Source: Bradyrhizobium sp. SRS-191 (GTDB lineage: Bacteria > Pseudomonadota > Alphaproteobacteria > Rhizobiales > Xanthobacteraceae). Taken from it: DNA of 64,000 nt. The DNA is taken from positions 62,001 through 126,000 of the forward strand of contig NZ_JANBVS010000007.1 of the NCBI RefSeq assembly GCF_024586915.1. Direction: 5' to 3'. Shown piece by piece: positions 21,065 through 58,831 of this stretch (position 1 is the first letter of the stretch; each line of letters opens with the position of its first letter). A program made the position numbers and the translations under genes. The notes under the pieces are model-generated. The model searched no databases and was not told where the DNA came from. It saw only the letters and a list, made by a program, of their open reading frames with translations.

Positions 21065-21416
21065 AATCGACGGCGAGGCCGGTCACAACGTGATCGCGGC
21101 GCTCGCGGACATCGCGCCTGACTTCGCCACCTACGTGATCGAATTCCCGTTCGGCGACATCTATTCGCGCCCGGGTCTCGACCTGCGCAGCCGCGAGATC
21201 GCGACCATCGCGGCCCTGACCGCGCTCGGCAATGCCGGGCCGCAGTTGAAGGTGCATATTCACGCCGGCCTCAATGTCGGCCTCAGCCGCGAGGAGATCA
21301 CCGAGGTGATCATGCAGATGGCGGTCTATGCCGGCTTTCCCTCCGCCCTCAACGGGTTGTTCGCAGCCAAGGCTGTGTATGCCGAGGCCGATGCAAAGGC
21401 CGCTGCGGCCGCTTAG
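20943..21416 (+). CDS. Carboxymuconolactone decarboxylase family protein
   Basis: This 157-residue protein has the CMD/AhpD-like alpha-helical fold: the core LDLRSREIATIAALTALGNA (about residues 79-98) and VHIHAGLNVGLSREEITEVI (about residues 104-123), then MAVYAGFPSALNGLFAAK. The paired Cys of true AhpD is absent; it looks more like gamma-carboxymuconolactone decarboxylases, which use His. It starts inside the end of the merR frame with GAGAGGA just upstream, so the two are one transcript. It is probably part of a small detoxification pair; substrate unknown. Confidence 0.82.
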   Translation: MTMTQSIPSRSATTSTAPTGAQSDANHDQDRLARGRRALDRIDGEAGHNVIAALADIAPDFATYVIEFPFGDIYSRPGLDLRSREIATIAALTALGNAGPQLKVHIHAGLNVGLSREEITEVIMQMAVYAGFPSALNGLFAAKAVYAEADAKAAAAA

Positions 21417-21502
21417 CTCTCAGCGACGATGCGAGGGCGTCATGGCCCGCGCGAGCGAAGCGAGATGCGGGACTGGCGGTGACGCCCGCAGGTCGCTGCC
21501 GC

Positions 21503-22345
21503 TCAAGCGGGCGACGCCTCGATCGACCTCACGCTGCCGGAGACTCTCACCGGCGCGCCCGGTTGCCCGTCGAGATCGACCTGGAGGCCGCACGGCACGC
21601 CCATGTCCTCGCCCTGCCGGATCATGATCGACCCTACGGCCGGCCACGCCAGCTCGCGCAGATAGCCGGCGAGCGCCGCGGCGGCCGCGCCCGTCGCCGG
21701 GTCCTCGTAGACGCCGCCGAACGGAAACGGGTTGCGGGCGTGAAACAGCTCCGGCGTCTCGGCGTGAACGAGAGCGAAGGTGCAGTAGCGCTGGCGCTGC
21801 GCCAGCGCCTGACCACGGTTGAAGTCGTAAGCGATGGCGGCGAGGCGGCCGCGGTCGCGCAGCGCGATCACCGGATGATCCATTCCGGCGTGGGCGATGA
21901 CGGGCGGGATCCTTTCGTCGAGGTCGCCGTGCGACAGTCCGAACAGCGCGAGGATTTCGTCCAATGCGTCCGGAGACAGCGCGCGCGTCTGCGTCGGCGG
22001 CGATCGAAATGCCGCCCCCCATTCGCCAGCCGAGTGATGGCCGTCGACGGTGATGGCGGCATGGTTGAGCTGGAGCGCGAACGTCCCCGGGCGTTCGTGC
22101 CGCGCGAGCGCCGCGCCGAGCGCGATGGTCGCGTGCCCGCAGAAGTCCACCTCGGCCTCCGGCGCGAAGTAGCGCACACGCCATGTGTCACCGTCCGGCG
22201 CCGCGAACGCGGTCTCGGAATATCCGATCTCCGCCGCCATCGCCTGCATTGCAGCTGCTTCAGGCAGCGTCTCGCCAATCACCACACCCGCCGGATTGCC
22301 GCCGCGTGGTCCGTCGGTGAAGGCTGCAATGCGTTGGATGATCAT
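21503..22345 (-). CDS. PhzF family isomerase/epimerase-like protein
   Basis: This 280-residue protein shows the PhzF two-lobed fold. The N-terminal strand is MIIQRIAAFTDGPRGGNPAGV (catalytic-domain signature), then EIGYSETAFA with the conserved Glu near residue 45, VRYFAPEAEVDFCGHATIAL near residues 58-77, and the C-terminal RNPFPFGGVYEDPATGAAAA repeat of the same pattern near residue 215. Family members include phenazine-pathway isomerases and many uncharacterised homologs. No phenazine genes are nearby, so a general isomerase role is likely. Confidence 0.9.
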   Translation of the reverse strand: MIIQRIAAFTDGPRGGNPAGVVIGETLPEAAAMQAMAAEIGYSETAFAAPDGDTWRVRYFAPEAEVDFCGHATIALGAALARHERPGTFALQLNHAAITVDGHHSAGEWGAAFRSPPTQTRALSPDALDEILALFGLSHGDLDERIPPVIAHAGMDHPVIALRDRGRLAAIAYDFNRGQALAQRQRYCTFALVHAETPELFHARNPFPFGGVYEDPATGAAAAALAGYLRELAWPAVGSIMIRQGEDMGVPCGLQVDLDGQPGAPVRVSGSVRSIEASPA

Positions 22346-22576
22346 GAGGCTAGAGATAGTCGTTGGTGGTGGCCAGAAACTGTAACCAGGACGTCAGAGT
22401 TGCGCTTGCCACAATCATTGCCGAACGCTTGGGACCATTCTATCGTATCGTCGGACTAGCTAGTCAGATCAAGATAGGCATTCGTTCATTCCCGCAGCCC
22501 AGTTTCGGTAAGGTTCTTCAGGTAGCCGCATACTCGAAAAAGACCTCACCACTTCTTTTTGCTGGACGTCATTGTT

Positions 22577-23344
22577 ATGATTGAACCCTTAGATAAATTC
22601 AAGGAAGCGAAACTAAAGGTTAGATGGGCCCAGATTCATATCTACAAGCTTATTGATCAATATAGTGCGTTTCTCGCGTCTGAAGCTGCGCAGGCGACTA
22701 TCCTTCAAGATGAGAAAACGGGAAGCCATCATCTTGAACTCCAAGCTCCTCAGGAGTTGATGCCTAAAGTTGCGTTGATTGTAGGTGACGTGGTGCACAA
22801 TCTACGCACCGCGTTTGATTACATCTCGATTGGTATAACTGGCATCGAAGCGATGTCGTTGCCCGTTGGTCGAAGAAAGAGCGACCTTCTTGCTCTCAAG
22901 CGCTACAAGGAGATCAGGCAAGTGAACTCCACGTTGGCGGACTTTATCGTTGATGAGATCCAGCCTTATCATCGTGGGAGATACATGCTCTGGGAGCTAT
23001 CCGAGCTAGACCGTCTCGACAAGCATCGTCTGATACTGCCTACTATTCAACATGTGCATCGCCTTGGGATGATTTTAGAGGATGCGAACGGCAAAACTCT
23101 AGAGAATCGATGGGTTTCCAATCAAAGTAGTTTGGGTGCTCGAGTTCTGCCTGGCGATGGCCCGTTTAAAATCAGGGACCAAGGTCAATCGGGCATAAGC
23201 GTAAGCTTCGGGCCCGGAACGCCATTCAATAACGAGCCCGTACTCGAAACTCTAGATCGGCTGGTTGAATGTGCTCCCCGCGCTATTCAAGCGTTTGAAG
23301 AGTTCTACTTTGGAAAAAACTCTGATGCCGATTCGTCCGAATAG
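22577..23344 (+). CDS. Hypothetical protein of AT-rich, probably acquired origin
   Basis: The 255-residue protein has no domain I can name. A central segment VALIVGDVVHNLRTAFDYIS (about residues 67-86) looks like a conserved helix, and DELDRLDKHR-like text (SELDRLDKHRLILPTIQHV) follows near residue 140; this pattern recurs in hypothetical proteins I recall from scattered bacteria. No signal peptide or membrane segment is visible. Base composition and codon use (many A/T third positions) differ sharply from all neighbours, and AT-rich flanks run from about 22350 to 23430. ATG 22577 was preferred to an upstream TTG at 22559. Horizontal transfer is inferred. Confidence 0.65.
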   Translation: MIEPLDKFKEAKLKVRWAQIHIYKLIDQYSAFLASEAAQATILQDEKTGSHHLELQAPQELMPKVALIVGDVVHNLRTAFDYISIGITGIEAMSLPVGRRKSDLLALKRYKEIRQVNSTLADFIVDEIQPYHRGRYMLWELSELDRLDKHRLILPTIQHVHRLGMILEDANGKTLENRWVSNQSSLGARVLPGDGPFKIRDQGQSGISVSFGPGTPFNNEPVLETLDRLVECAPRAIQAFEEFYFGKNSDADSSE

Positions 23345-23415
23345 TTCAGTTATCGAAATCTACGTACGTGCATATGTCGATCAATCTTGAGTACAATTAG
23401 CTTTTCGATTCTTTG

Positions 23416-23640
23416 TTATTTTCGGTCCGTCCGCACATACGCCCGCTCGCCCGTGCGCGGCTGAAACCACACGTCCAGCGTCTCGCCGCTGCTGGGATCG
23501 ACGAAGCGCTCGTCGGTCTTGATCCAGTCTGGCCCGGGCGGGGCGGAGAGCGCGGCGCGCTTGTAGCCGCCCTGGCGGAAGAAGAACCACACCAGCACGA
23601 TGGCTGACATAACCGCGAGCCAGAGCATGAGGCCGATCAT
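23416..23640 (-). CDS. Small membrane-anchored hypothetical protein
   Basis: The 74-residue protein has one N-terminal membrane helix (MLWLAVMSAIVLVWFFF) and a soluble tail with a DERFVDPSSGETLDVWFQP segment. Its ATG overlaps the stop of the YbjQ-like gene as ATGA, so the two are coupled. The tail motif suggests a short extracytoplasmic or cytoplasmic beta domain, but I recognise no family. Its 3' end marks the edge of the AT-rich island. Confidence 0.65.
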   Translation of the reverse strand: MIGLMLWLAVMSAIVLVWFFFRQGGYKRAALSAPPGPDWIKTDERFVDPSSGETLDVWFQPRTGERAYVRTDRK

Positions 23641-23960
23641 GGCGCGGGTTCGATGACGGCGGCTGTGCCATAGGCGACGATCTCGCTCATGGTCTGGCCG
23701 ATCTCGGCGCTGTCGAAGCGCATCATCAGAATGGCGTTCGCGCCCATCGACGTCGCGTTGTGGACGAGCCGATCGAGCGCGTGGCGCCGTGCCTCCTCCA
23801 GCATCTGCGTGTATTCATGGATCTCGCCACCGACGATCGAGCGCAGGCTGGCCACCAGATTGCCGCCAAGCCCACGGCTGCGCACCACCACGCCAAAGCA
23901 CTGGCCCAGCATCCGCACCGTGCGGTGGCCGGTCACGTTTTCGGTCGTCACGACAATCAT
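23637..23960 (-). CDS. YbjQ/UPF0145 family protein
   Basis: This 107-residue protein matches the YbjQ heavy-metal-binding-domain-like family, which forms pentameric rings. Family segments are MIVVTTENVTGHRTVRMLG (opening), VRSRGLGGNLVASLRSIVGG near residue 26, and the MGANAILMMRFDSAEIG stretch near residue 73. Function is not settled. The start at 23960 has GGAGG upstream; a longer frame to 24011 was rejected. It is the first gene of a coupled pair. Confidence 0.85.
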   Translation of the reverse strand: MIVVTTENVTGHRTVRMLGQCFGVVVRSRGLGGNLVASLRSIVGGEIHEYTQMLEEARRHALDRLVHNATSMGANAILMMRFDSAEIGQTMSEIVAYGTAAVIEPAP

Positions 23961-24094
23961 GGGTAACCTCCGTCTGATGCCGGCTGTTGCGGCCGGCGCT
24001 CGATTTGACAATCGAGCGACCGTTTCGGTTCATGCGAGCCGCCAGCCTGCGCCAAGTCTCTTTCGGAGCCCATGCTGCGCCCCAAATTCCGCTG

Positions 24095-24276
24095 TCGTCC
24101 CGGGCAAGTGGGCCGGCGCGGCAGCGCCGGCGCGCGCCGACCCGGAATCCATACTCCCGATCGATGATAAGGCGGCAGGCTGGAGCGACAGCACGCCTCG
24201 CACGGGCGATGGTGGTTATGGGTCCCGGGTCGGCGCCCGACAACGCTTGCGCGTTGCCGGGCTTGCCCGGGACGAC
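24095..24276. repeat. Palindromic intergenic repeat (CCCGGAATCCATA family), copy 2
   Basis: The outer arms GTCCCGGGCAAG and CTTGCCCGGGAC enclose a GGCGCGGCAGCGCCGGCGCG hairpin and the ACCCGGAATCCATACTCCCG segment shared with the 8305 and 63604 copies. It is larger and more diverged than those. Confidence 0.7.
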
Positions 24277-30886: not shown

Positions 30887-31114
30887 TTAGACGGCGTACA
30901 GCAGGAGCAGGGCGATCAGCAGCGAGAAGATGCCGAGCGCTTCGGTCACCGCGAAGCCGAAAATCAGGTTGCCGAACTGGCCCTGGGCGGCCGACGGGTT
31001 GCGCAGAGCAGCCGACAGGTAGTTGCCGAAGATGATGCCGATGCCGGCACCCGCGCCACCCATGCCGATGCAGGCAATGCCCGCGCCAATGTACTTCGCT
31101 GCGACCGGATCCAT
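30887..31114 (-). CDS. atpE: ATP synthase F0 subunit c
   Basis: This 75-residue proteolipid forms the rotor ring. It has two membrane helices joined by the polar loop containing RNPSAAQGQ near residues 38-46, and a carboxylate in the second helix ([19 protein letters not shown], Glu near residue 58) that carries the proton. A near-perfect AAAGGAG ribosome site precedes the ATG, as expected for the high copy number of this subunit. Confidence 0.96.
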
Positions 31115-31152
31115 GACGAACTCCTTTGAGAGGTTAGGTAGAGAGGGCCGGA

Positions 31153-31896
31153 TCAGTGGCCCGGATGGATAGCATCGTTGAGATAGATGCAGGTGAGGAT
31201 CGTGAAGACGTAGGCCTGGAGGAACGCGACCATCAGCTCGAGGCCGGTCAGGGCGACCGTGAGACCGAGCGGCAGCAGCGCGCCGACCTTGCCGACGAAA
31301 CCGAGCGCGCCGAGCATGGTCACGAAGCTCGCGAACACCTTCAGCGTGACGTGTCCGGCCAGCATGTTGGCGAACAGACGGACGCTGTGCGAGATCGGGC
31401 GGGAGAAGAAGGAGATGATTTCAATCACGACCACCAGCGGCAGGATCACCGCGGGGATGCCGGACGGCACGAACAGCTTAAAGAACTTCAGGCCGTTCTT
31501 GTAGAAGCCGTAGATGATGACCGTCAGGAACACCAGGAGCGCCAGCGCGAAGGTGACGATGATGTGGCTGGAGACGGTGAAGGTGTAGGGGATGATGCCG
31601 ACGATGTTCGAGACGAAGATGAACATGAACAGCGAGAACACCAGCGGGAAGAACGTCATGCCGTGCGAGCCGGCGCTGGTTCTGATGGTGTTGGCGACGA
31701 ATTCGTAGGACAGCTCGACCATCGACTGGAAGCGGCCCGGGACGAGCGCGCGTCCGGCGGCCATCATCATGACGGCGATGAGAACGACCGCGAGCAGCAT
31801 GTACGCGGACGAATTGGTGAAGGCGATCTCCTGATTGCCGATGTGGCCGATCGTGAAGATCTTGTTGAGGTGGAATTGATGGATCGGATCGATCAT
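31153..31896 (-). CDS. atpB: ATP synthase F0 subunit a
   Basis: This 247-residue membrane subunit has five to six helices and provides the proton half-channels. The essential Arg is in [20 protein letters not shown] near residue 175, and [16 protein letters not shown] forms the last helix end. It lies after atpI with a 104-base gap that contains a 16-base tandem duplication. Confidence 0.95.
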
Positions 31897-31948
31897 CCGC
31901 GTGGCGTCTCAGTTGTTCACCGGCCACGCCGGCGCTTTGCAATTCACT

Positions 31949-31980
31949 CGTGGGCCTTCAGAGTCGTGGGCCTTCAGAGT
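31949..31980. repeat. Two tandem copies of a 16-base unit
   Basis: CGTGGGCCTTCAGAGT is repeated exactly, head to tail, in the atpI-atpB gap, 53 bases upstream of atpB on the minus strand. It is a recent-looking duplication and may be polymorphic between strains. Confidence 0.9.
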
Positions 31981-32000
31981 CACGGTCTTTCGCGCAGAAC

Positions 32001-32393
32001 TCACTGGCGGGACCTGTCGGGAGCTATGCCTGCAGATCTCACCACGTTCAACACGCCGGCGGCGAAGCCGAGCAGGAAAAACACGATAAATCCGAAGGGC
32101 GATGTCGACAGCAAGCGGTCGAAGCCCCAGCCAAGCACCGCGCCGACGAGGACACCGGCGATCAACTCGGAGGACAGTTGCAGGCCACGCGCCATGGCCG
32201 AAGCCCGGGCTGCAGTGTCACCGCCGCTGTTTCCAGGTTGATCAGCCCCGATCTTTCGGCCGTCGCGAAATTCGGACAACCGTTGGTCGAGACTTCCGAG
32301 CCTTGCGGAAAGCGCAACCTCATCGGGCGACTTGTCGCGATCTCCGTGTCCGCTGCTCTCGTTCGTGCCATCCGCCATGTGCTTGTCCGCCAT
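32001..32393 (-). CDS. atpI: ATP synthase protein I (AtpI/AtpZ-like)
   Basis: This 130-residue protein has a polar 65-residue head and two membrane helices in the last half (LSSELIAGVLVGAVLGWGFD and FGFIVFFLLGFAAGVLNVV). This is the size and topology of AtpI, which helps assemble the c-ring. It leads the F0 operon. ATG 32393 and ATG 32378 are both possible starts and neither has a strong ribosome site. A sigma-70-like promoter lies 70-100 bases upstream. Confidence 0.88.
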   Translation of the reverse strand: MADKHMADGTNESSGHGDRDKSPDEVALSARLGSLDQRLSEFRDGRKIGADQPGNSGGDTAARASAMARGLQLSSELIAGVLVGAVLGWGFDRLLSTSPFGFIVFFLLGFAAGVLNVVRSAGIAPDRSRQ

Positions 32394-32462
32394 GTGTGGA
32401 GACCCGACCCGTTGCTGCGAGTTTCAGGAAATAGCGCCCCATCGCCCTTTAAAGCCGCGCGG

Positions 32463-32491
32463 ACCATACTGACCGCATCCCCCCAAGTCAA
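32463..32491 (-). promoter_or_regulatory. Predicted sigma-70 promoter of the F0 ATP synthase operon
   Basis: On the minus strand a -35 box TTGACT (32491-32486) and a -10 box TATGGT (32468-32463) are 17 bases apart, the optimal spacing. Transcription would start near 32456 and give a leader of about 60 bases before atpI. Confidence 0.65.
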
Positions 32492-32869
32492 GATTGCGTG
32501 TTGATCTGTTAGATGTCTGATTCTGCTCGTTTTCTCGGCTTTTTCGTCAGATCGGTCGCGCGTGTCACCGCGCCGCATCAACAGTGTTCTGTGCGGTTGC
32601 GATGGGGCGCAGGTCGAGCCGCTCAGCCGGTGCTCCAAGGCGGCGCCGATACGCCTGGTCCCCGGAGCCGGGAACCCGCGGCGGCGCACGTCCACGGCGG
32701 GGCCGGCACGACGTAAGGGACGAGCGCGTTGAAATCGCGCCGCGGCGCCTCTACGTGAGTTCAACCGGCGTCGCCTGTGGCAGGTGACCGCAGTCGAGGC
32801 AATGTCATGGCGGCGACACAATGCGAGCGTGCATGGCGGCCATCCCGAACGCGCCCTGGAGAGCGAGAC
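32492..32869. other. Intergenic region between atp operon and exported coiled-coil gene
   Basis: About 380 bases with no supported gene, repeat or terminator. The first part is mildly T-rich (32510-32550). The rest is GC-rich without clear structure. A promoter for the gene at 32870 should be here but I cannot place it. Confidence 0.45.
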
Positions 32870-52850: not shown

Positions 52851-54989
52851 CTACGCCGCCCTGATGTTGGTCAGGAACGCGTCGACCTCCTCGCGCAGCG
52901 TCTCGGCCTCGCGGCGCAGTGTCTCCGAGGCGCTCAGCACCTCGTTGGCGGAGGTGCCGGCCTGGGCCGAGGCGCTGGAGACGCCGGTGATGTTGTTGGA
53001 GACCTCGGTGGTGCCCGACGCCGCCTGCTGGATGTTGCGGGCGATCTCGTGCGTCGCGGTGCCCTGCTGCTCGACGGCGGCGGCGATCGCTGTCGTGACG
53101 TTGTCGATCTCGGCGATGGTCTCGCCGATGTTGCGGATCGCCGACACGGCCGACGAGGCGACCTGCTGCATGCCGGCGATCTGGGTGCGGATCTCGTCGG
53201 TGGCCTTCGCCGTCTGGCTGGCGAGGCTCTTCACCTCCTGGGCGACGACCGCGAAGCCGCGGCCGGCCTCGCCGGCGCGCGCCGCCTCGATGGTGGCGTT
53301 GAGCGCCAGCAGGTTGGTCTGCGAGGCGATCGCCTGGATCAGGTCCACGACGACGCTGACGCGGCTGGCATTGTCGGCGAGGCCCTGCATCGTGGAGTCG
53401 GTGGCGCCGGCCTCCTCGACCGCCTTCTTGGCGATCTGCGCCGAGGTCACGACCTGGCGGCCGATCTCCGCGATCGACGACGACAGCTGCTCGGTACCGG
53501 CCGACACCGTCTGTACGTTGACCGAGGTCTCCTCGGCCGCGGCAGCGACGGCGCTGACCAGCGAGTTGGACTGATCGGCCGTCTGCGACATGCTCTGCGC
53601 GGTCGTCTGCATCGCGCTGGCGGAGCTCTGCAGATTGGCGAGCGCGCTGCGCACCGTGGCCTCAAACTCGGCGATCCGCGCCTCCATGCGCGTCGCGCGC
53701 TCGGCCTTGGCCACGTTCTCGCGATCCTGCTCGGCGGCGAGCGTGCGCGCCTGAATCATGTTGTCGCGGAACACCTGCAATGTGTCGACCATCGCGCCGA
53801 TCTCGTCGTGCTGCTTGGACGCCGCGATCTCGGTCTCGAGGTCGCCGCTCGACAGGTTCTGCATCGCCTGCTGCAGCCGCTTGATGCGGCGCAGGATGTT
53901 GCCGCCGACATAGAGCCAGACGAACAGCACCGAGCCGAGCAGGGTGGCCGCGCCGGCGCCGATCATGCCGAGCGTCCCCAACTCGATCTCGCGGCCGGCC
54001 GTGCCGGTGGCCCCTTCGGTCGATTTGCGCACGCCCTCGACCAGCTGCTGGACGCTGATGTCGAGGCCGACATTGAGCTTGCGCGTCTCCTCCAGCACGG
54101 TCTGGCCGTAATCGTTGGCGTCGAGCTCCTTCTCGCGGGTCTTGAACACGCGGGTCTTGCCTTCGCCGAGCGCGGCGAGCTTCATCGCGGCATCGTTGAT
54201 CGCCTTGGTGCCGCGGCCGCTCGGCAGCAGCTCCAGGTTCGATTTGAGCTGCGCCAGCGAGTCCTTGAACTGCCGCTCGACGGCCTCCAGCGTGTCGCTG
54301 TCATTGGCCGAGAGCGCGGCGGCCATCTGCGCCACGATCAGATTGCCGGATGCGATGACGTTGCCGAGCTGCTCGACGAAGCGCGCCGCCGCCGTTGCGT
54401 CGTCAGCCGACACTTCCGCCGCGCCGAGCACGGCATTGAGCTGCGTCTGCGCGTCGAGCATCGGCTCGTTCGCCGCCTTGGTGAACTCCTCCTGCGCCTT
54501 GCGCAGGGCGTCGTATTGCTGATTGTGCGTGGCCGCGACTGCGAGCCGCTCGCGCGCCGCCGAGACCAGGCTCTGATTGGCCTCGTTGATGTTCTTGATG
54601 GTCTCAGCGAGCGGCGCCACGACGCTCTTGGCGGCGCCGAGTGCTGCGATCTCGGCAAGCCGCTGCTCGGTGCCCTTCTGGATCTCCTGCATCTTCTTCA
54701 GCCGCTCGTTGAGCGCATCCTCGCTTTGCGAACCCAACAGCGCGGGGCCGAGGCTGGCGAGGCTCGAGCTCTGCGCCAGCAGCTGCAGGCTGGAGGTGAG
54801 GCGGGGAATGTCGCGGCTGGAGAGGTCGACCATGGTGCTGCCGATGTGGCGCAGCATCAGTCCGGCGCCGATGCTGATGGCGATCGCCATGCCCGCGATC
54901 ACGGCGAAGGCGGCGAACAGGCTGCCACGGACGCCCCATCTGGGACGCAGGACTCCGAGCATTCTGCTGAAGCTGAATCGACCCGCCAT
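52851..54989 (-). CDS. Methyl-accepting chemotaxis protein
   Basis: This 712-residue receptor has two membrane helices (about residues 22-42 and 335-357), a large periplasmic helical sensor of roughly 290 residues, a HAMP domain (NILRRIKRLQQAMQNLSSGD, about residues 363-410) and a signalling domain whose hairpin tip contains EVKSLASQTAKATDEIRTQI near residue 590 and [20 protein letters not shown]-like text just before it. It passes ligand occupancy to CheA/CheW. No che genes are nearby, and the ligand is unknown. The extended periplasmic part is helix-rich and lacks a Cache-like look. Confidence 0.93.
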   Translation of the reverse strand: MAGRFSFSRMLGVLRPRWGVRGSLFAAFAVIAGMAIAISIGAGLMLRHIGSTMVDLSSRDIPRLTSSLQLLAQSSSLASLGPALLGSQSEDALNERLKKMQEIQKGTEQRLAEIAALGAAKSVVAPLAETIKNINEANQSLVSAARERLAVAATHNQQYDALRKAQEEFTKAANEPMLDAQTQLNAVLGAAEVSADDATAAARFVEQLGNVIASGNLIVAQMAAALSANDSDTLEAVERQFKDSLAQLKSNLELLPSGRGTKAINDAAMKLAALGEGKTRVFKTREKELDANDYGQTVLEETRKLNVGLDISVQQLVEGVRKSTEGATGTAGREIELGTLGMIGAGAATLLGSVLFVWLYVGGNILRRIKRLQQAMQNLSSGDLETEIAASKQHDEIGAMVDTLQVFRDNMIQARTLAAEQDRENVAKAERATRMEARIAEFEATVRSALANLQSSASAMQTTAQSMSQTADQSNSLVSAVAAAAEETSVNVQTVSAGTEQLSSSIAEIGRQVVTSAQIAKKAVEEAGATDSTMQGLADNASRVSVVVDLIQAIASQTNLLALNATIEAARAGEAGRGFAVVAQEVKSLASQTAKATDEIRTQIAGMQQVASSAVSAIRNIGETIAEIDNVTTAIAAAVEQQGTATHEIARNIQQAASGTTEVSNNITGVSSASAQAGTSANEVLSASETLRREAETLREEVDAFLTNIRAA

Positions 54990-55175
54990 GTCTCGTTTCC
55001 CTCAATAGCCGCTACTTTGAGCTGATGTTTGCGGGGCACTATCGCGGCGGCGAGTTAACAATCCGGGAAATTACGCAGTTCGTGCTGATTTTTTGCGCAT
55101 TTCCGCATTTCATGTCGCGGCATTCTACAGCGCAGAAAGGGTTGTTAGTCCGCGGAACCGATAACCCATGATAAC

Positions 55176-55199
55176 AAAAGGCCGGCATCGCTGCCGGCC
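55176..55199 (-). terminator. Terminator after outer-membrane protein gene
   Basis: GGCCGGCA pairs with TGCCGGCC across TCGC. On the minus strand the stem is followed by TTTTG, so it ends transcription of the beta-barrel gene. It lies 36 bases past that gene's stop. Confidence 0.75.
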
Positions 55200-55234
55200 G
55201 CTCGCTGCTTGTTTTTATTTGACGCCTGTGTAGC

Positions 55235-55969
55235 TCAGTAGCGGGCCGCGACAGGAGCGCCCCAGTTGAAGCGGTAGTTCACGCCGGCCTTGAAGGTGTG
55301 ATCGTCTGTGCTGAAGCTGCCGGTCGGAACCAGCGCGGCGGGCGTCGTGAACGTGGCGTTGCCGAAATTGTAGTACTGATACTCGGCCTTAGCCGACCAG
55401 CTCGGCGCGAACATGTATTCGAGGCCGCCGCCGATGGTCCAGCCGTTGCGGTGATCGCCATTCGTGGCGAAGGGCACCGGGGTGCCGGCCAGCGTCACCT
55501 TCTCATTGTTGTCCGAATAGGCGTAGCCGCCCTTCACATAGAGCAGGCCCGGACCCCAGGTGTAGCCGAAGCGGCCGGTGATCGAGCCGAGGCCGCGCTG
55601 GCTGTTGGTATAGGTATAGCCGAGCGGGAACGCCGCGCCGACATTACCGCTCAGCCAGCTGTACTGGCCTTCCGCGCCGATCACCCAGGTGGGCGCGAAC
55701 TGCCAGTCGGCGCCGACCTGCACGCCGCCGAGGAAGCGGCCATTGGAATTGTTGCCGGTGCCGAGGCCGGAATAGTTGTTGTTGCTGGAGAACGCGCCGC
55801 CGAGATGGGCGCCGATGTAGAAGCCGGTCCAGTTGTAGATCGGCGAGACGTAGGCCGGCGGCGCCTTGGTCGCGTAGGGATAGGTGCGGGCGCCGAGGTC
55901 GGCGGCGAAGGCGGACGGAGCCGAGGCGAGCACGGCGAGCGCAACGGTGGCGAACAGGATCTTCTTCAT
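55235..55969 (-). CDS. Outer-membrane beta-barrel protein (Omp25/31-like)
   Basis: This 244-residue protein has a signal peptide (MKKILFATVALAVLASAPSA, cleavage near AFAAD) and an eight-stranded-barrel style of alternating aromatic strands: NWTGFYIGAHLGGAFSSNN near residue 50 is the classic opening of rhizobial and Brucella Omp25/Omp31-like porins, and it ends with KAGVNYRFNWG near the C-terminus. Such proteins stabilise the outer membrane and may act as small pores. The start has GGAGA upstream, and a terminator follows at 55176-55199. Confidence 0.92.
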   Translation of the reverse strand: MKKILFATVALAVLASAPSAFAADLGARTYPYATKAPPAYVSPIYNWTGFYIGAHLGGAFSSNNNYSGLGTGNNSNGRFLGGVQVGADWQFAPTWVIGAEGQYSWLSGNVGAAFPLGYTYTNSQRGLGSITGRFGYTWGPGLLYVKGGYAYSDNNEKVTLAGTPVPFATNGDHRNGWTIGGGLEYMFAPSWSAKAEYQYYNFGNATFTTPAALVPTGSFSTDDHTFKAGVNYRFNWGAPVAARY

Positions 55970-56188
55970 GGCGGGTCTCCAACTCAGACTAACAAGGCTC
56001 GCGCAGTGCGCGCCGTCGATGGGTTGGAGATAGATCGAATTTGAATCAAATGCTGTCACTCGCGCAGCACACCGCCCTCGAACCCAACCGGTTCGCCGGC
56101 AAACGTCGCGTCGTAGTTAGCAGAGTCCTAACGAAGCCTGTCGTGCGGATCGTTCGTGCACGCCGCTGTGCCGTTGCGGCACAAGCGG

Positions 56189-56500
56189 TTAACGCGCCTT
56201 AAGGGCTTCGTGCAGCGCCGCCGCGGCGTCGCGCAGCTGAGACCGGTGAAAGTCGTCGTCCGCGGGAATCGCGCCGACGCTTGCGGCGAGCTCGGTGAGG
56301 ATCGCGGCGAGCAGCCCATAGTTCAGGTGCATGTGGATCGACTTGCGGACGTCCTCTGCTCCCGGCCGCTCCAGGGTCAGCGCCAGCCCTGAGGGTTCGA
56401 GATGCACCTCGAAGCGCGAGGATCGTTCGAACGTGCCGACGTAGAACTTGTCGGGATATTCCAGCGCGATCTCGGCCTTGTCGGGAATGGGTTTCGACAT
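56189..56500 (-). CDS. Small conserved hypothetical protein
   Basis: The 103-residue soluble protein opens with MSKPIPDKAEIALEYPDKFY and shows short strands (GTFERSSRFEVHLEPSGL, LALTLERPG) followed by helices (HMHLNYGLLAAILTELAASV and LRDAAAALHEALKAR). I recognise no family. It has AGGAG seven bases upstream of the ATG at 56500, the codon use is native, and no signal peptide is visible. It sits alone between an outer-membrane gene and a divergent chemoreceptor. Confidence 0.75.
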   Translation of the reverse strand: MSKPIPDKAEIALEYPDKFYVGTFERSSRFEVHLEPSGLALTLERPGAEDVRKSIHMHLNYGLLAAILTELAASVGAIPADDDFHRSQLRDAAAALHEALKAR

Positions 56501-56842
56501 CGGAAGGCTCCTGAGGGGGATACGCCGCAGCCTCGCAAATCCGACGCGGCCCGCCTTGCGCCAGGTCAGACGATTGCCATCGCCGCCGAGCCCACCGCAG
56601 GCCGCATCGGCCGCCGCCACCGGCTGCGTCGCTCCGTCCAGGGGGCGCCGGCTCATGCGGCAAGGGCATGGCCGCAGTTCTACGGATACGGAAATTTACG
56701 TTCGTTGAAAAAGGGTTGTGCATGCTGATCGCATTAACCGCTCAGGCCGGAGCAGCTAAGCCGGCGCCCATCGATCCTCAGCGTGGATGTGGCGCACCCC
56801 GGCCCCCAGCCGTCTCGGTCCTCACGAGGAATGTCGTCCGAC
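56501..56842. other. Divergent intergenic region before PilZ chemoreceptor
   Basis: About 340 bases with no supported gene. Promoters for the small hypothetical gene and the chemoreceptor should lie here. The least GC-rich part is 56685-56745. No dyad stronger than six bases was seen. Confidence 0.4.
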
Positions 56843-58831
56843 ATGAAGATGCGTCTTTCCATTTCCGCGCTCATTGCAGTCTTCGGCCTCGTGCTCGCGC
56901 TCGGCTTCGGCGCCGTCGTCCTGACCAGCGCCTATGCGCTTCGTGAGCTCAAGGTCGGCGGACCGCTCTACAGCAAGATCAAGCTCGGCAACGACCTCGT
57001 GGCCGACATCCTGCCGCCGCCGGAATATGTGCTCGAGGCCTATCTCGAGGCGACGCTGGCGTTGCGTGAGCCCAAGAATCTGGACACGCATGCCAAGAAG
57101 CTCACGCAGCTCAGGAAGGACTACGAAGACCGCAAGGCGTTCTGGACCACTTCGCCACTCGAGCCTGAGCTGAAGTCGCTGCTGGTCGAACGGTCCGATG
57201 CCGAGGTCGGCAAGTTCTGGCGGGCAGCCGAAGGCGAGCTGATCCCAGCGCTCAGCGCCGGCGACATGACCAAGGCCGGCGCCGCCTATGCCCGGCTCAG
57301 CGACGCCTATGCTGCGCACCGCGCTCTCATCGATACGCTGGTCGAGAAGGCGAACAAGTTGAACTCGGACATGGAGGGTACGGCCGCGGATCAGGACAGC
57401 CGCATCTCGGTCGTGGTCTGGACCGTGGCTTGTATCGTGCTGGCGCTGGTCGTTGCGGGAATGACGGGCCTCGTCATCGGCGTCGTGCGGCCGCTGTCGC
57501 GCATGACCGGTCTGATGCGGCGGATTGCCGAGGGCCAGCTCGCCACGGAGATTCCCTATGCCGATCGCGGCGACGAGATCGGCGCGATGGCGCGCGCGCT
57601 CGACGTCTTCAAGACCAATGCGATCGAGAACAACAGCCTGCGGGACAAGCAGGACCGCGACCGCACCGCGGCCGAGCAGGCGAAGAAGCGGGCCATGCTG
57701 AACATGGCCGACGTCATCGAGCGCGAGACCGGCACGTCGGTCGAGGCCGCGGCCAGCGCCTCGCGCCAGGTCGAAGCGGTGGCCAGCGGTCTGTCCAACC
57801 TCGCGCACGAGCTCTCTGCCGATGCCCAGTCCGTCGCGGCGGCTTCGGAGCAGTCGCTCGCAAATGCCCAGACCGTCTCGTCGGCGGCCGAGCAGTTGAG
57901 CTCGGCGATCCGCGAGATCTCCAGCCAGGTCGCCCGGGCGAGCACCCTGACCAAATCGGCCGTCGGAGGGCGCGAAAAAGCCAAGACCACGATGCTGTCG
58001 CTGACCCAGGCGGTCGACAAGATCGCCGAGGTGTCGAACCTGATCGGCGGCATCGCCGGGCAGACCAACCTGCTCGCGCTCAACGCCACGATCGAAGCGG
58101 CGCGCGCCGGCGAGGCCGGTCGCGGCTTCGCCGTGGTCGCCGCCGAGGTCAAGTCGCTGTCGGATCAGACCGCCAAGTCGACGGAGGAGATCTCGCGCCT
58201 GATCGGCGAGGTGCAGGCCACCACGCAGGCGACCATCGACGTCGTCGAAGGCATCGGCAGCCAGATTTCCGAGATCGACGAGGTGGCGGCCTCGATTGCC
58301 GCGGCGATGGAGGAGCAGCACGCGGCGACGCAGGAGATCAGCCGTTCGGTCCACTCCTCCGCGAGCGCCGCGCGCGATGTCTCGTCCAAGATCGGCAATG
58401 TCGGCAAGGATGCCGGGATGGTCAATGATCGCGCCGCGGAGGTTCGCAGCGCGATCGGCGACGTCGCCTCCAGCCTGACGTCGCTGCGCACGACCCTGGT
58501 GAAGGTGGTCAGGACGACGACGGCCGAGGCCGACCGCCGGCACGCGCCGCGATTCAAATCCAGCTTGCCGATCAAGGTCATCGACAACACCAAGGGGATG
58601 GTGAAGGCCGATCTGGTGGACATCTCCGAGGGTGGCGCCTGGTTCCGCTTCGAGCCCGAGCCGGGGATCGGCGATCGCGGCGTTCTGCAGTTCGCAGGCT
58701 TCGACCACGATGTGCCCTATCTGGTTCGCGGCCGTGACCGCGACGCGTTGCGGGTCGAGTTCGATCTGGGCGCCGCGCGCGAGTCCTTCGTCACCTGGTT
58801 CAGGTCGGCCTTCACGCGCGAGGCGGCCTGA
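56843..58831 (+). CDS. Methyl-accepting chemotaxis protein with C-terminal PilZ domain
   Basis: This 662-residue receptor has two membrane helices (about residues 5-30 and 190-215) flanking a 150-residue periplasmic sensor, a HAMP domain (about 216-265), a signalling domain with [20 protein letters not shown] near residue 417, and a C-terminal PilZ domain from about residue 562. Both c-di-GMP motifs are intact: RRHAPR (RxxxR) near 563 and DISEGG (DxSxxG) near 592. Such receptors, known in Azospirillum and other bacteria, adjust taxis to c-di-GMP level. ATG 56831 is also possible, but GAGGA abuts it; ATG 56843 gives workable spacing. Confidence 0.92.

What the first reader, a model, noticed from the sequence alone, without database searches (positions are those of the whole stretch)
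22350..23430. AT-rich single-gene island
The gene at 22577-23344 and its flanks have a composition and codon use unlike the rest of the window. The protein has no clear family beyond a recurring helix with VGDVVHNLRTAFDY. Such lone acquired genes are often defence or mobile cargo.
Basis: partly seen in the sequence, partly recalled or inferred. Interest (0 to 1): 0.52.

Follow-up and report, generated by a model that had tools for sequence, protein, structure and literature searches.

The report
Solo copy of transposon passenger gene
A foreign-looking single gene in a soil bacterium belongs to a widespread, unnamed protein family that elsewhere is often carried inside small jumping DNA elements, and here it sits alone without the machinery that would move it.

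Summary
A 1.08-kb AT-rich island (22350-23427, GC 0.474; 768-bp windows elsewhere average 0.665, lowest 0.591) holds one intact gene, 22577-23344 (+), 255 aa. Five Bradyrhizobium genomes with both flanks at one place lack it and carry other spacers. The protein is no orphan: relatives (mostly 15-35% identity) occur patchily in many phyla, and none of 63 members scanned matched a Pfam model convincingly. The main result is where the relatives sit. In 21 of 63 distinct loci outside the Bradyrhizobium set an IS1595-type transposase (one of them only a relic) lies within 2 kb. Seventeen loci in all are complete transposons: inverted repeats (19/24 or better) and exact 8-bp duplications around transposase plus this gene (16 IS1595-type, one IS1-like). 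The family is thus a recurrent passenger of such transposons. The window copy, like the 18 other Bradyrhizobium copies examined, shows no transposase, inverted repeats or duplication: an intact solo copy, apparently stranded. Function is unproven. Conserved polar residues on three predicted helices, a weak fold resemblance of one member to HEPN domains, and rare co-passengers (methylase-Mrr fusion twice, PemK-like toxin once) make a defence or addiction enzyme the best guess, but the window protein lacks the HEPN R-x4-H histidine.

The parts
22350..23427 (.). AT-rich island occupying the spacer between a PhzF-like gene and a small gene
   Evidence: GC 0.474; flanks homologous to five relatives up to about 22345-22350 and from about 23422-23434, no blastn match of their spacers to the island
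22577..23344 (+). gene of the GD-HNLR-D / DKH family (IS1595 passenger family), 255 aa, intact
   Evidence: ORF; family alignment A3 of 62 sequences; AlphaFold2 pLDDT 91.0, pTM 0.87
22760..22840 (+). codons 62-88: predicted helix with the motif G70 D71 H74 N75 L76 R77 D81 Y82
   Evidence: of 62 rows: G70 62, D71 59, H74 56, N75 61, L76 62, R77 60, D81 62; position 82 H in 34, Y in 14 (most rows were found by patterns that include part of this motif, so these counts are flattered); helix
22988..23029 (+). codons 138-151: predicted helix ending in the D148 K149 H150 motif
   Evidence: D148 58, K149 62, H150 62 of 62 rows; invariant K149 and H150 also in the 10-row alignment A1, whose rows were not found by patterns; helix
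22610..22645 (+). codons 12-23 of the first long predicted helix, with conserved K14 and H21
   Evidence: K14 60 of 60, H21 52 of 60 rows
21503..22345 (-). left neighbour, PhzF-like (name by recall, no domain search), native composition
   Evidence: ORF, GC3 0.832; conserved beside the same site in relatives
23416..23640 (-). right neighbour, small conserved gene of about 74 aa; its domain content was not tested in the right frame
   Evidence: read from the sequence and its counterpart in L133; region conserved in relatives

Best explanation
The island is a horizontally acquired, transposase-free (solo) copy of a passenger gene family that, in other bacteria, travels inside IS1595-type transposons. 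Shown: in complete elements the order is usually inverted repeat, transposase, passenger, inverted repeat, with an exact 8-bp target duplication outside. Inferred: the transposase moves the passenger together with the element, and passenger copies then outlive loss of the transposase and ends. The window gene reached a variable spacer beside phzF either as such a stranded copy or by ordinary recombination of DNA that already held a solo copy. Inferred, weaker: the protein is a helical-bundle enzyme whose conserved K14/H21, D71/H74/N75/R77/D81 and D148/K149/H150 sit on three helices and form its working site (no distances were measured). The best guess for its role is a nucleic-acid-directed defence or addiction factor resembling HEPN ribonucleases (about 0.3). 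The confidence given is for the origin and family statement, not for the biochemical role.
For: IS1595-type transposase within 2 kb in 21 of 63 distinct loci. In the 30 of those loci with at least 7 kb on both sides, 13 transposase hits lie within 2 kb and 0 beyond. Phylum-wide sample: 2 of 7 other genomes with the gene (one of the 7, L150, is the same place as L032). Complete elements with inverted repeats of 19/24 or more and 8/8 duplications: L010, L014, L016, L018, L031, L037, L039, L043, L046, L047, L051, L055, L073, L076, L152, L155 (13 of 62 re-scored, L010 separately) and L176. Pfam finds IS1595 transposase domains in 12 of 102 neighbours and in those of L047, L152, L155. Right-end relics without an own transposase in L011, L013, L028, L061, L067, L078 and a transposase C-terminal relic in L030 suggest decay towards solo copies. 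The window row groups with L011, L013, L014 and L022 (SH-aLRT 86, not starred); L014 is a complete element, L011 and L013 keep a right end. Empty sites in five relatives. Family genes are AT-richer than their flanks in 57 of 62 loci.
Against: For this copy there is no direct trace of a transposon: no transposase relic, no IS1595 transposase match in the host genome, no IR or target duplication, and none at the 18 other Bradyrhizobium copies. 42 of the 63 other distinct loci have no transposase nearby either, though some are cut by contig ends. The tree cannot tell gain from loss of the transposon link, and the label is not clustered on it. The grouping with transposon-borne copies is weakly supported; the row most identical to the window's (31%) is a solo Bradyrhizobium copy, L002.
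Confidence: 0.66

Rival explanations
1. The family is primarily a chromosomal or phage defence gene that moves by many routes; IS1595-type elements merely capture it now and then, and the window copy never sat in a transposon.
For: Most copies have no transposase nearby (42 of 63, 18 of 18 Bradyrhizobium); copies occur on viral contigs and on five plasmid records; one element uses an IS1-like transposase instead.
Against: Complete elements are scattered across the tree, with similar inverted repeats in the 15 IS1595-type ones compared and mostly the same layout, which would need many independent captures in the same arrangement.
Confidence: 0.27
2. The island is a non-autonomous mobile insertion cassette: passenger gene between inverted repeats, moved in trans by an IS1595 transposase.
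For: Lone gene, compact island, variable site; such cassettes exist as a class (PMC3129680, passages).
Against: No such repeats at the edges: best IR match with an exact 8-bp duplication 13/24, best with 7/8 is 16/24 at places far from the edges, as in its shuffles; no shared 5-mer, direct or inverted, between the 60- and 70-base edge stretches. No IS1595 transposase match in the host.
Confidence: 0.03
3. The protein is an active HEPN-type ribonuclease (toxin or abortive-infection effector).
For: A second model (family member L055) has, among its best PDB second-look matches, sacsin HEPN 3o10_C (Z 8.2, rmsd 3.0, 119 aligned) and AF_0298 HEPN 2hsb (Z 7.6, rmsd 3.5, 119 aligned), with RnlA lower (6y2r, Z 5.1, rmsd 4.3, 114 aligned). 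Pattern R77-x4-H82: H at 82 in 34 of 62 rows, R at 77 in 60. Co-passengers include a PemK-like toxin and methylase-Mrr fusions.
Against: Foldseek gives no PDB match at E 0.001 for either model. A designed bundle scores Z 7.9 in the same list, and the tool warns that Z under about 13 may be a common arrangement for helical bundles. hhalign against two small HEPN alignments is no better than the transposase control. The window protein has Y82, not H; D81 and K149-H150 are better conserved than position 82.
Confidence: 0.25
4. The protein is a transposition accessory factor (regulator or target selector) of the IS1595 element.
For: Encoded inside the element, downstream of and in the direction of the transposase in 15 of 17 complete elements.
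Against: Intact solo copies persist, the window's in a genome without an IS1595 transposase match; the same family rides with an IS1-like transposase; in L037 and L047 the transposase points the other way.
Confidence: 0.1

Closest known systems
IS1595-family insertion sequences with passenger genes (transporter IS, tIS)
   Same: Family members elsewhere lie in elements with an IS1595 transposase (zinc ribbon plus DDE_Tnp_IS1595), inverted repeats and 8-bp duplications. The 8-bp duplications are stated for the family in PMC8101967 (passages); tIS as a class in PMC3129680 and PMC7986276 (passages).
   Different: The window island has no transposase, repeats or duplication. PMC8101967 gives a single transposase gene as usual for the family. 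Whether this passenger was listed in the 2009 paper that named the IS1595 family could not be checked (not held).
HEPN-domain ribonucleases (RnlA and relatives)
   Same: Helical-bundle resemblance in a second look for one family member; histidine at the R-x4-H place in about half of the family rows.
   Different: Beta strands inserted between helices; window has R-x4-Y; no sequence-profile similarity found with small alignments.
Mobile insertion cassettes (MIC)
   Same: Single passenger gene without transposase.
   Different: No inverted repeats here.
Methylase-Mrr fusion restriction modules
   Same: Sit 16 and 41 bp upstream of the family gene in elements L047 and L043.
   Different: Found beside the family gene at 2 loci only; no such gene beside the window copy.

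Membership tests
IS1595-family transposon (for the window island) | IS1595 transposase inside the element | tested here: not met
   No relic in six frames of 21400-24100; no PF12762 match in the host genome
IS1595-family transposon (for the window island) | terminal inverted repeats of the family type | tested here: not met
   Best matrix score in the island 5.5 against 15.6-33.0 for the arms that built the matrix; 8.8 with the larger matrix, below a chance site elsewhere in the window at 11.0
IS1595-family transposon (for the window island) | 8-bp target duplication | tested here: not met
   No shared 5-mer or longer between the edge stretches
IS1595-family transposon with passenger (for the gene family elsewhere) | transposase, inverted repeats and 8-bp duplication around the passenger | tested here: met
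   17 loci; 16 with IS1595-type transposase (in L010 split over two frames) and one with an IS1-like transposase
GD-HNLR-D / DKH protein family (defined here) | K14, G70, D71, N75, R77, D81, K149, H150 | tested here: met
   All present in the window protein
HEPN ribonucleases | R-x4-6-H catalytic motif (motif by recall) | tested here: not met
   Window R77-x4-Y82; H at position 82 in 34 of 62 family rows
HEPN ribonucleases | HEPN four-helix fold | tested here: inconclusive
   Z 8.2 (rmsd 3.0, 119 aligned) and Z 7.6 (rmsd 3.5, 119 aligned) to HEPN entries for the L055 model
HEPN ribonucleases | RNase activity | not testable with these tools
   needs experiment
Known anti-phage defence proteins (PADLOC) | match to a curated model | tested here: inconclusive
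   No match up to E 10; the library is of 2023
Mobile insertion cassette | inverted repeats around a transposase-free passenger | tested here: not met

The most novel reading that the evidence does not exclude
A widespread protein family without a convincing Pfam or PHROG match in any of 63 members scanned is a dedicated passenger of IS1595- and IS1-type transposons and encodes a divergent HEPN-like nuclease that protects or addicts the host, sometimes coupled to a methylase-Mrr restriction fusion; the window copy is a domesticated solo form.
Probability: 0.22. Interest if true: 0.66.

Novelty: new member of a known kind. Interest (0 to 1): 0.45.

Why it matters
It turns one anonymous AT-rich gene into a member of a broad, unmodelled family with a defined vehicle. 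Small transposons that carry one recurrent passenger across several phyla suggest selection on that passenger, and the precise element ends give a way to find and date movements. If the passenger is a defence or addiction enzyme, insertion sequences would be an under-counted carrier of immune genes.

Tried and rejected
Native gene with drifted composition: rejected by the empty sites and the compositional gap. Phage gene: no match in the phage records for the window protein, none in PHROGs for it and none better than E 0.014 among the families shown for 63 members; a weak relative (E 4e-4) in one Gordonia phage with family member L062 as query. MmcB-like Pfam hit (E 0.01, 16 bits, cut-off 22): below the cut-off and in 1 of 63 members, treated as chance. 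A possible decayed right end at 23401 noticed by eye scored -1.6 and was dropped. Sequence-profile link to HEPN: hhalign probability under 1% for both HEPN sets, the same as the transposase control; those alignments were small (6 and 9 rows as printed, one of the 6 below Pfam's cut-off) and hold ragged ORF ends; two HEPN_Apea loci were fetched but not used. Structure: Foldseek gave no PDB match at E 0.001 for the window model; the VIA second look for it was led by a designed bundle (Z 6.7, rmsd 4.6, 165 aligned) and listed no HEPN entry, which excludes nothing; BFVD gave one viral protein without a name, E 1.3e-8, TM 0.58/0.54.

Controls and biases. The inverted-repeat test: 4 of 300 random places in the window also scored 19/24 or more with an exact 8-bp match; a scan of the whole window found such pairs at one place only, 53283-58104, so the error rate is low but not zero. 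Shuffled flanks (3 per locus) reached a score of at most 18. The transposase count of 21 includes a C-terminal relic (L030), a hit cut by a contig end (L065) and one 1990 bp away with its own end (L061). In the 14 loci, L173 has a weak transposase fragment (E 6e-4) about 3 kb away. L026 has both repeat arms but no matching duplication, L053 has both arms at a contig end, L080 has arms without a duplication; these three are not counted as complete. Homologs were found by short motif patterns, so conservation inside GD..HNLR..D (and DKH) is partly built in; in A1, whose 10 rows came from protein searches, K14, A18, G70, L76, R77, D81, P96, I113, K149 and H150 are invariant. A3 leaves out, by my choice, duplicates (L012, L063, L068, L075) and L008, L034, L036, L041, L054, L057, L059, L060, L071 as fragments, ragged or near copies, and the plasmid row L010. 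In the tree L030 and L043 were labelled as lone copies; the transposon label was not clustered (17 changes, shuffled mean 15.1). The genome counts are lower bounds, since at most 10 and 6 first-look candidates per genome were scored.

Literature: none of the titles or abstract starts listed names this family; one search returned 0 papers, and motif strings 0 papers. Read as passages only: PMC12561309, PMC11092175, PMC7371123, PMC8101967, PMC7986276, PMC3129680. The 2009 paper on the IS1595 family was seen only in reference lists.

Full report
What is there. The island spans 22350-23427 and has GC 0.474 against a window background of 0.665; its single gene, 22577-23344 on the + strand, encodes 255 aa with GC3 0.494. 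It fills the spacer between the start codon of a PhzF-like gene and the end of a small gene. ARAGORN finds no tRNA gene in the window. The genus is Bradyrhizobium by inference: genome G001, given as same genus, holds the 4408-bp contig that a named record gives to Bradyrhizobium acaciae.

Empty site. A DNA search of 257 genomes of the genus gave five with both flanks at one place (G246, G231, G085, G222, G086). Reading these shows homology up to about window 22345-22350 and again from about 23422-23434, with spacers of about 175-860 bp between that have no blastn match to the island. One spacer (L137) holds a Barstar-family gene, another (L133) a different 133-aa ORF without a Pfam match. The spacer is thus a variable site. 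No listed match row outside the own genome touches the island (the list is cut at its weak end).

The family. The window protein has no match in NCBIfam, PHROGs, PADLOC or the sequences of solved structures, and only a sub-threshold Pfam hit. With single sequence or profile it has relatives in 9 and 16 of 265 genomes of the genus, own genome included, in 8 of 398 genomes across the phylum, own included, at 51 loci of named genomes (5 of them Bradyrhizobium, the rest Acidobacteria, Alpha-, Beta-, Gamma- and Deltaproteobacteria, Gemmatimonadetes, Chloroflexi, Actinobacteria and others), at 19 and 26 loci of viral contigs (partly the same contigs), and on five plasmid records. None of 63 members gave a convincing Pfam or PHROG match. 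Identity to the window protein is 15-31% over the 62-row alignment. Conserved positions over 62 rows: K14 60 of 60, H21 52 of 60, G70 62, D71 59, H74 56, N75 61, L76 62, R77 60, D81 62, D148 58, K149 62, H150 62. Part of this is built in by the motif patterns that found many rows; the 10-row alignment A1, made without patterns, has K14, G70, L76, R77, D81, K149 and H150 invariant.

The vehicle. A Pfam scan of 102 immediate neighbour ORFs (mechanical ORF calls of 100-700 aa, from the 60 loci kept; 6 duplicates or fragments left out) gave IS1595 transposase domains in 12 and a DNA methylase in 2; the other families shown match one neighbour each. PADLOC models for DNA methylases match 2 of the same 102 (25 of 99 families shown). 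A transposase profile built from six neighbours finds an IS1595-type transposase within 2 kb in 21 of 75 loci examined, which is 21 of 63 distinct loci after removing duplicates and the Bradyrhizobium loci (hosts of viral contigs are unknown). In the 30 of these with at least 7 kb on both sides all 13 hits are within 2 kb and none beyond. Looking for inverted repeats plus 8-bp duplications around the gene gives complete elements at 16 loci and one more (1 of 14 newly examined viral loci, four of which look like one virus). That is 14 of the 63 loci, 2 of 7 in the phylum-wide sample, and L176. Element sizes are about 2.0-3.9 kb; the IR consensus of the 15 IS1595-type elements is GGnAATTATATACTTGACnTAnCnAn. 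L043 has an IS1-like transposase. In 15 of the 17 the transposase comes first in the same direction; L037 and L047 differ. In L010 the transposase is split over two frames.

Decay. Six loci without an own transposase keep a right-end repeat 32-158 bp after the gene (L011, L013, L028, L061, L067, L078; scores 14.0-25.9 where the best in the 64-kb window is 9.0), and L030 keeps a C-terminal piece of the transposase. The 18 other Bradyrhizobium copies examined lack a transposase (two stretches are short, L012 and L158), a complete repeat pair and any convincing single repeat (best score 10.4). Some are broken (L019, L157, L166 split over frames; a stop inside the G148 copy). The window copy is intact but likewise has no transposase relic, repeat or duplication, and the host genome has no IS1595 transposase match.

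Tree. In a 62-row tree (quick method, 9 of 59 inner branches starred) the window row lies with L013, L022, L011 and L014 (support 86, unstarred), from Acidobacteria and Shewanella. Bradyrhizobium rows fall in several places. Transposon-borne and lone copies are mixed throughout. The tree is unrooted, so gain and loss cannot be told apart.

Structure and function. AlphaFold2 gives a confident model (pLDDT 91.0, pTM 0.87) with four main helices, a beta hairpin after the first and a small sheet before the last. A second member, L055, gives pLDDT 87.2, pTM 0.85. Foldseek finds no PDB match at E 0.001 for either. The VIA second look for L055 ranks two HEPN domains first and third (Z 8.2, rmsd 3.0 and Z 7.6, rmsd 3.5, each 119 residues) with a designed bundle between them (Z 7.9), and RnlA lower. 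This is suggestive at most. The window protein has R77-x4-Y82 where a HEPN ribonuclease would have histidine. Co-passengers inside elements are a methylase-Mrr fusion in L043 and L047, a PemK-like toxin ORF in L152 and DUF6338 in L073; most elements have no named co-passenger. I therefore put a defence or addiction role at about 0.3 and leave the chemistry open.

What is shown and what is inferred. Shown: foreign composition, empty sites, family, conserved positions, transposon residence of family members, absence of transposon features at the window. Inferred: that the window copy descends from a transposon-borne one; that the conserved positions form a working site; that the role is defence or addiction.

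Novelty. Passenger-carrying insertion sequences are an established class (PMC3129680 and PMC7986276, passages). This family as such a passenger was not found in the searches named under Tried and rejected, but the 2009 paper on the IS1595 family was not available, so prior listing cannot be excluded.

Noticed in passing
L137:1407-1790 (-), same site as the island in another Bradyrhizobium genome: A Barstar-family gene (Pfam E 2.6e-15) sits in the spacer where the window has its island, so this spacer takes different lone genes.
   Followed up: partly
L043:6266-7942 and L047:637-2196: DNA methylase-Mrr fusion genes lie 41 and 16 bp upstream of the family gene inside complete transposons with different transposase families.
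   Followed up: partly
L152:5881-6306 (+): PemK/MazF-like toxin ORF inside a complete IS1595-type element next to the family gene; no antitoxin looked for.
   Followed up: no
L034:5567-6226 (+): A 219-aa ORF without Pfam match overlaps the start of the family gene by 4 bp, a possible two-gene operon.
   Followed up: partly
L133, L134, L135 spacers: Palindromic repeats of the type GTCGTCCCTGCGAACGCAGGGACCCATA recur in the spacers of the relatives; none was noticed in the island.
   Followed up: no
G115 (loci L159, L161, L166): One Bradyrhizobium genome holds three separate copies of the family, one of them split into two frames.
   Followed up: no
window 31001-32500: A milder GC dip (about 0.605) elsewhere in the window.
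   Followed up: no
window 53283-58104: Inverted near-identical 24-mers (22/24) bracketed by matching 8-mers, judged a coding or low-complexity coincidence.
   Followed up: partly
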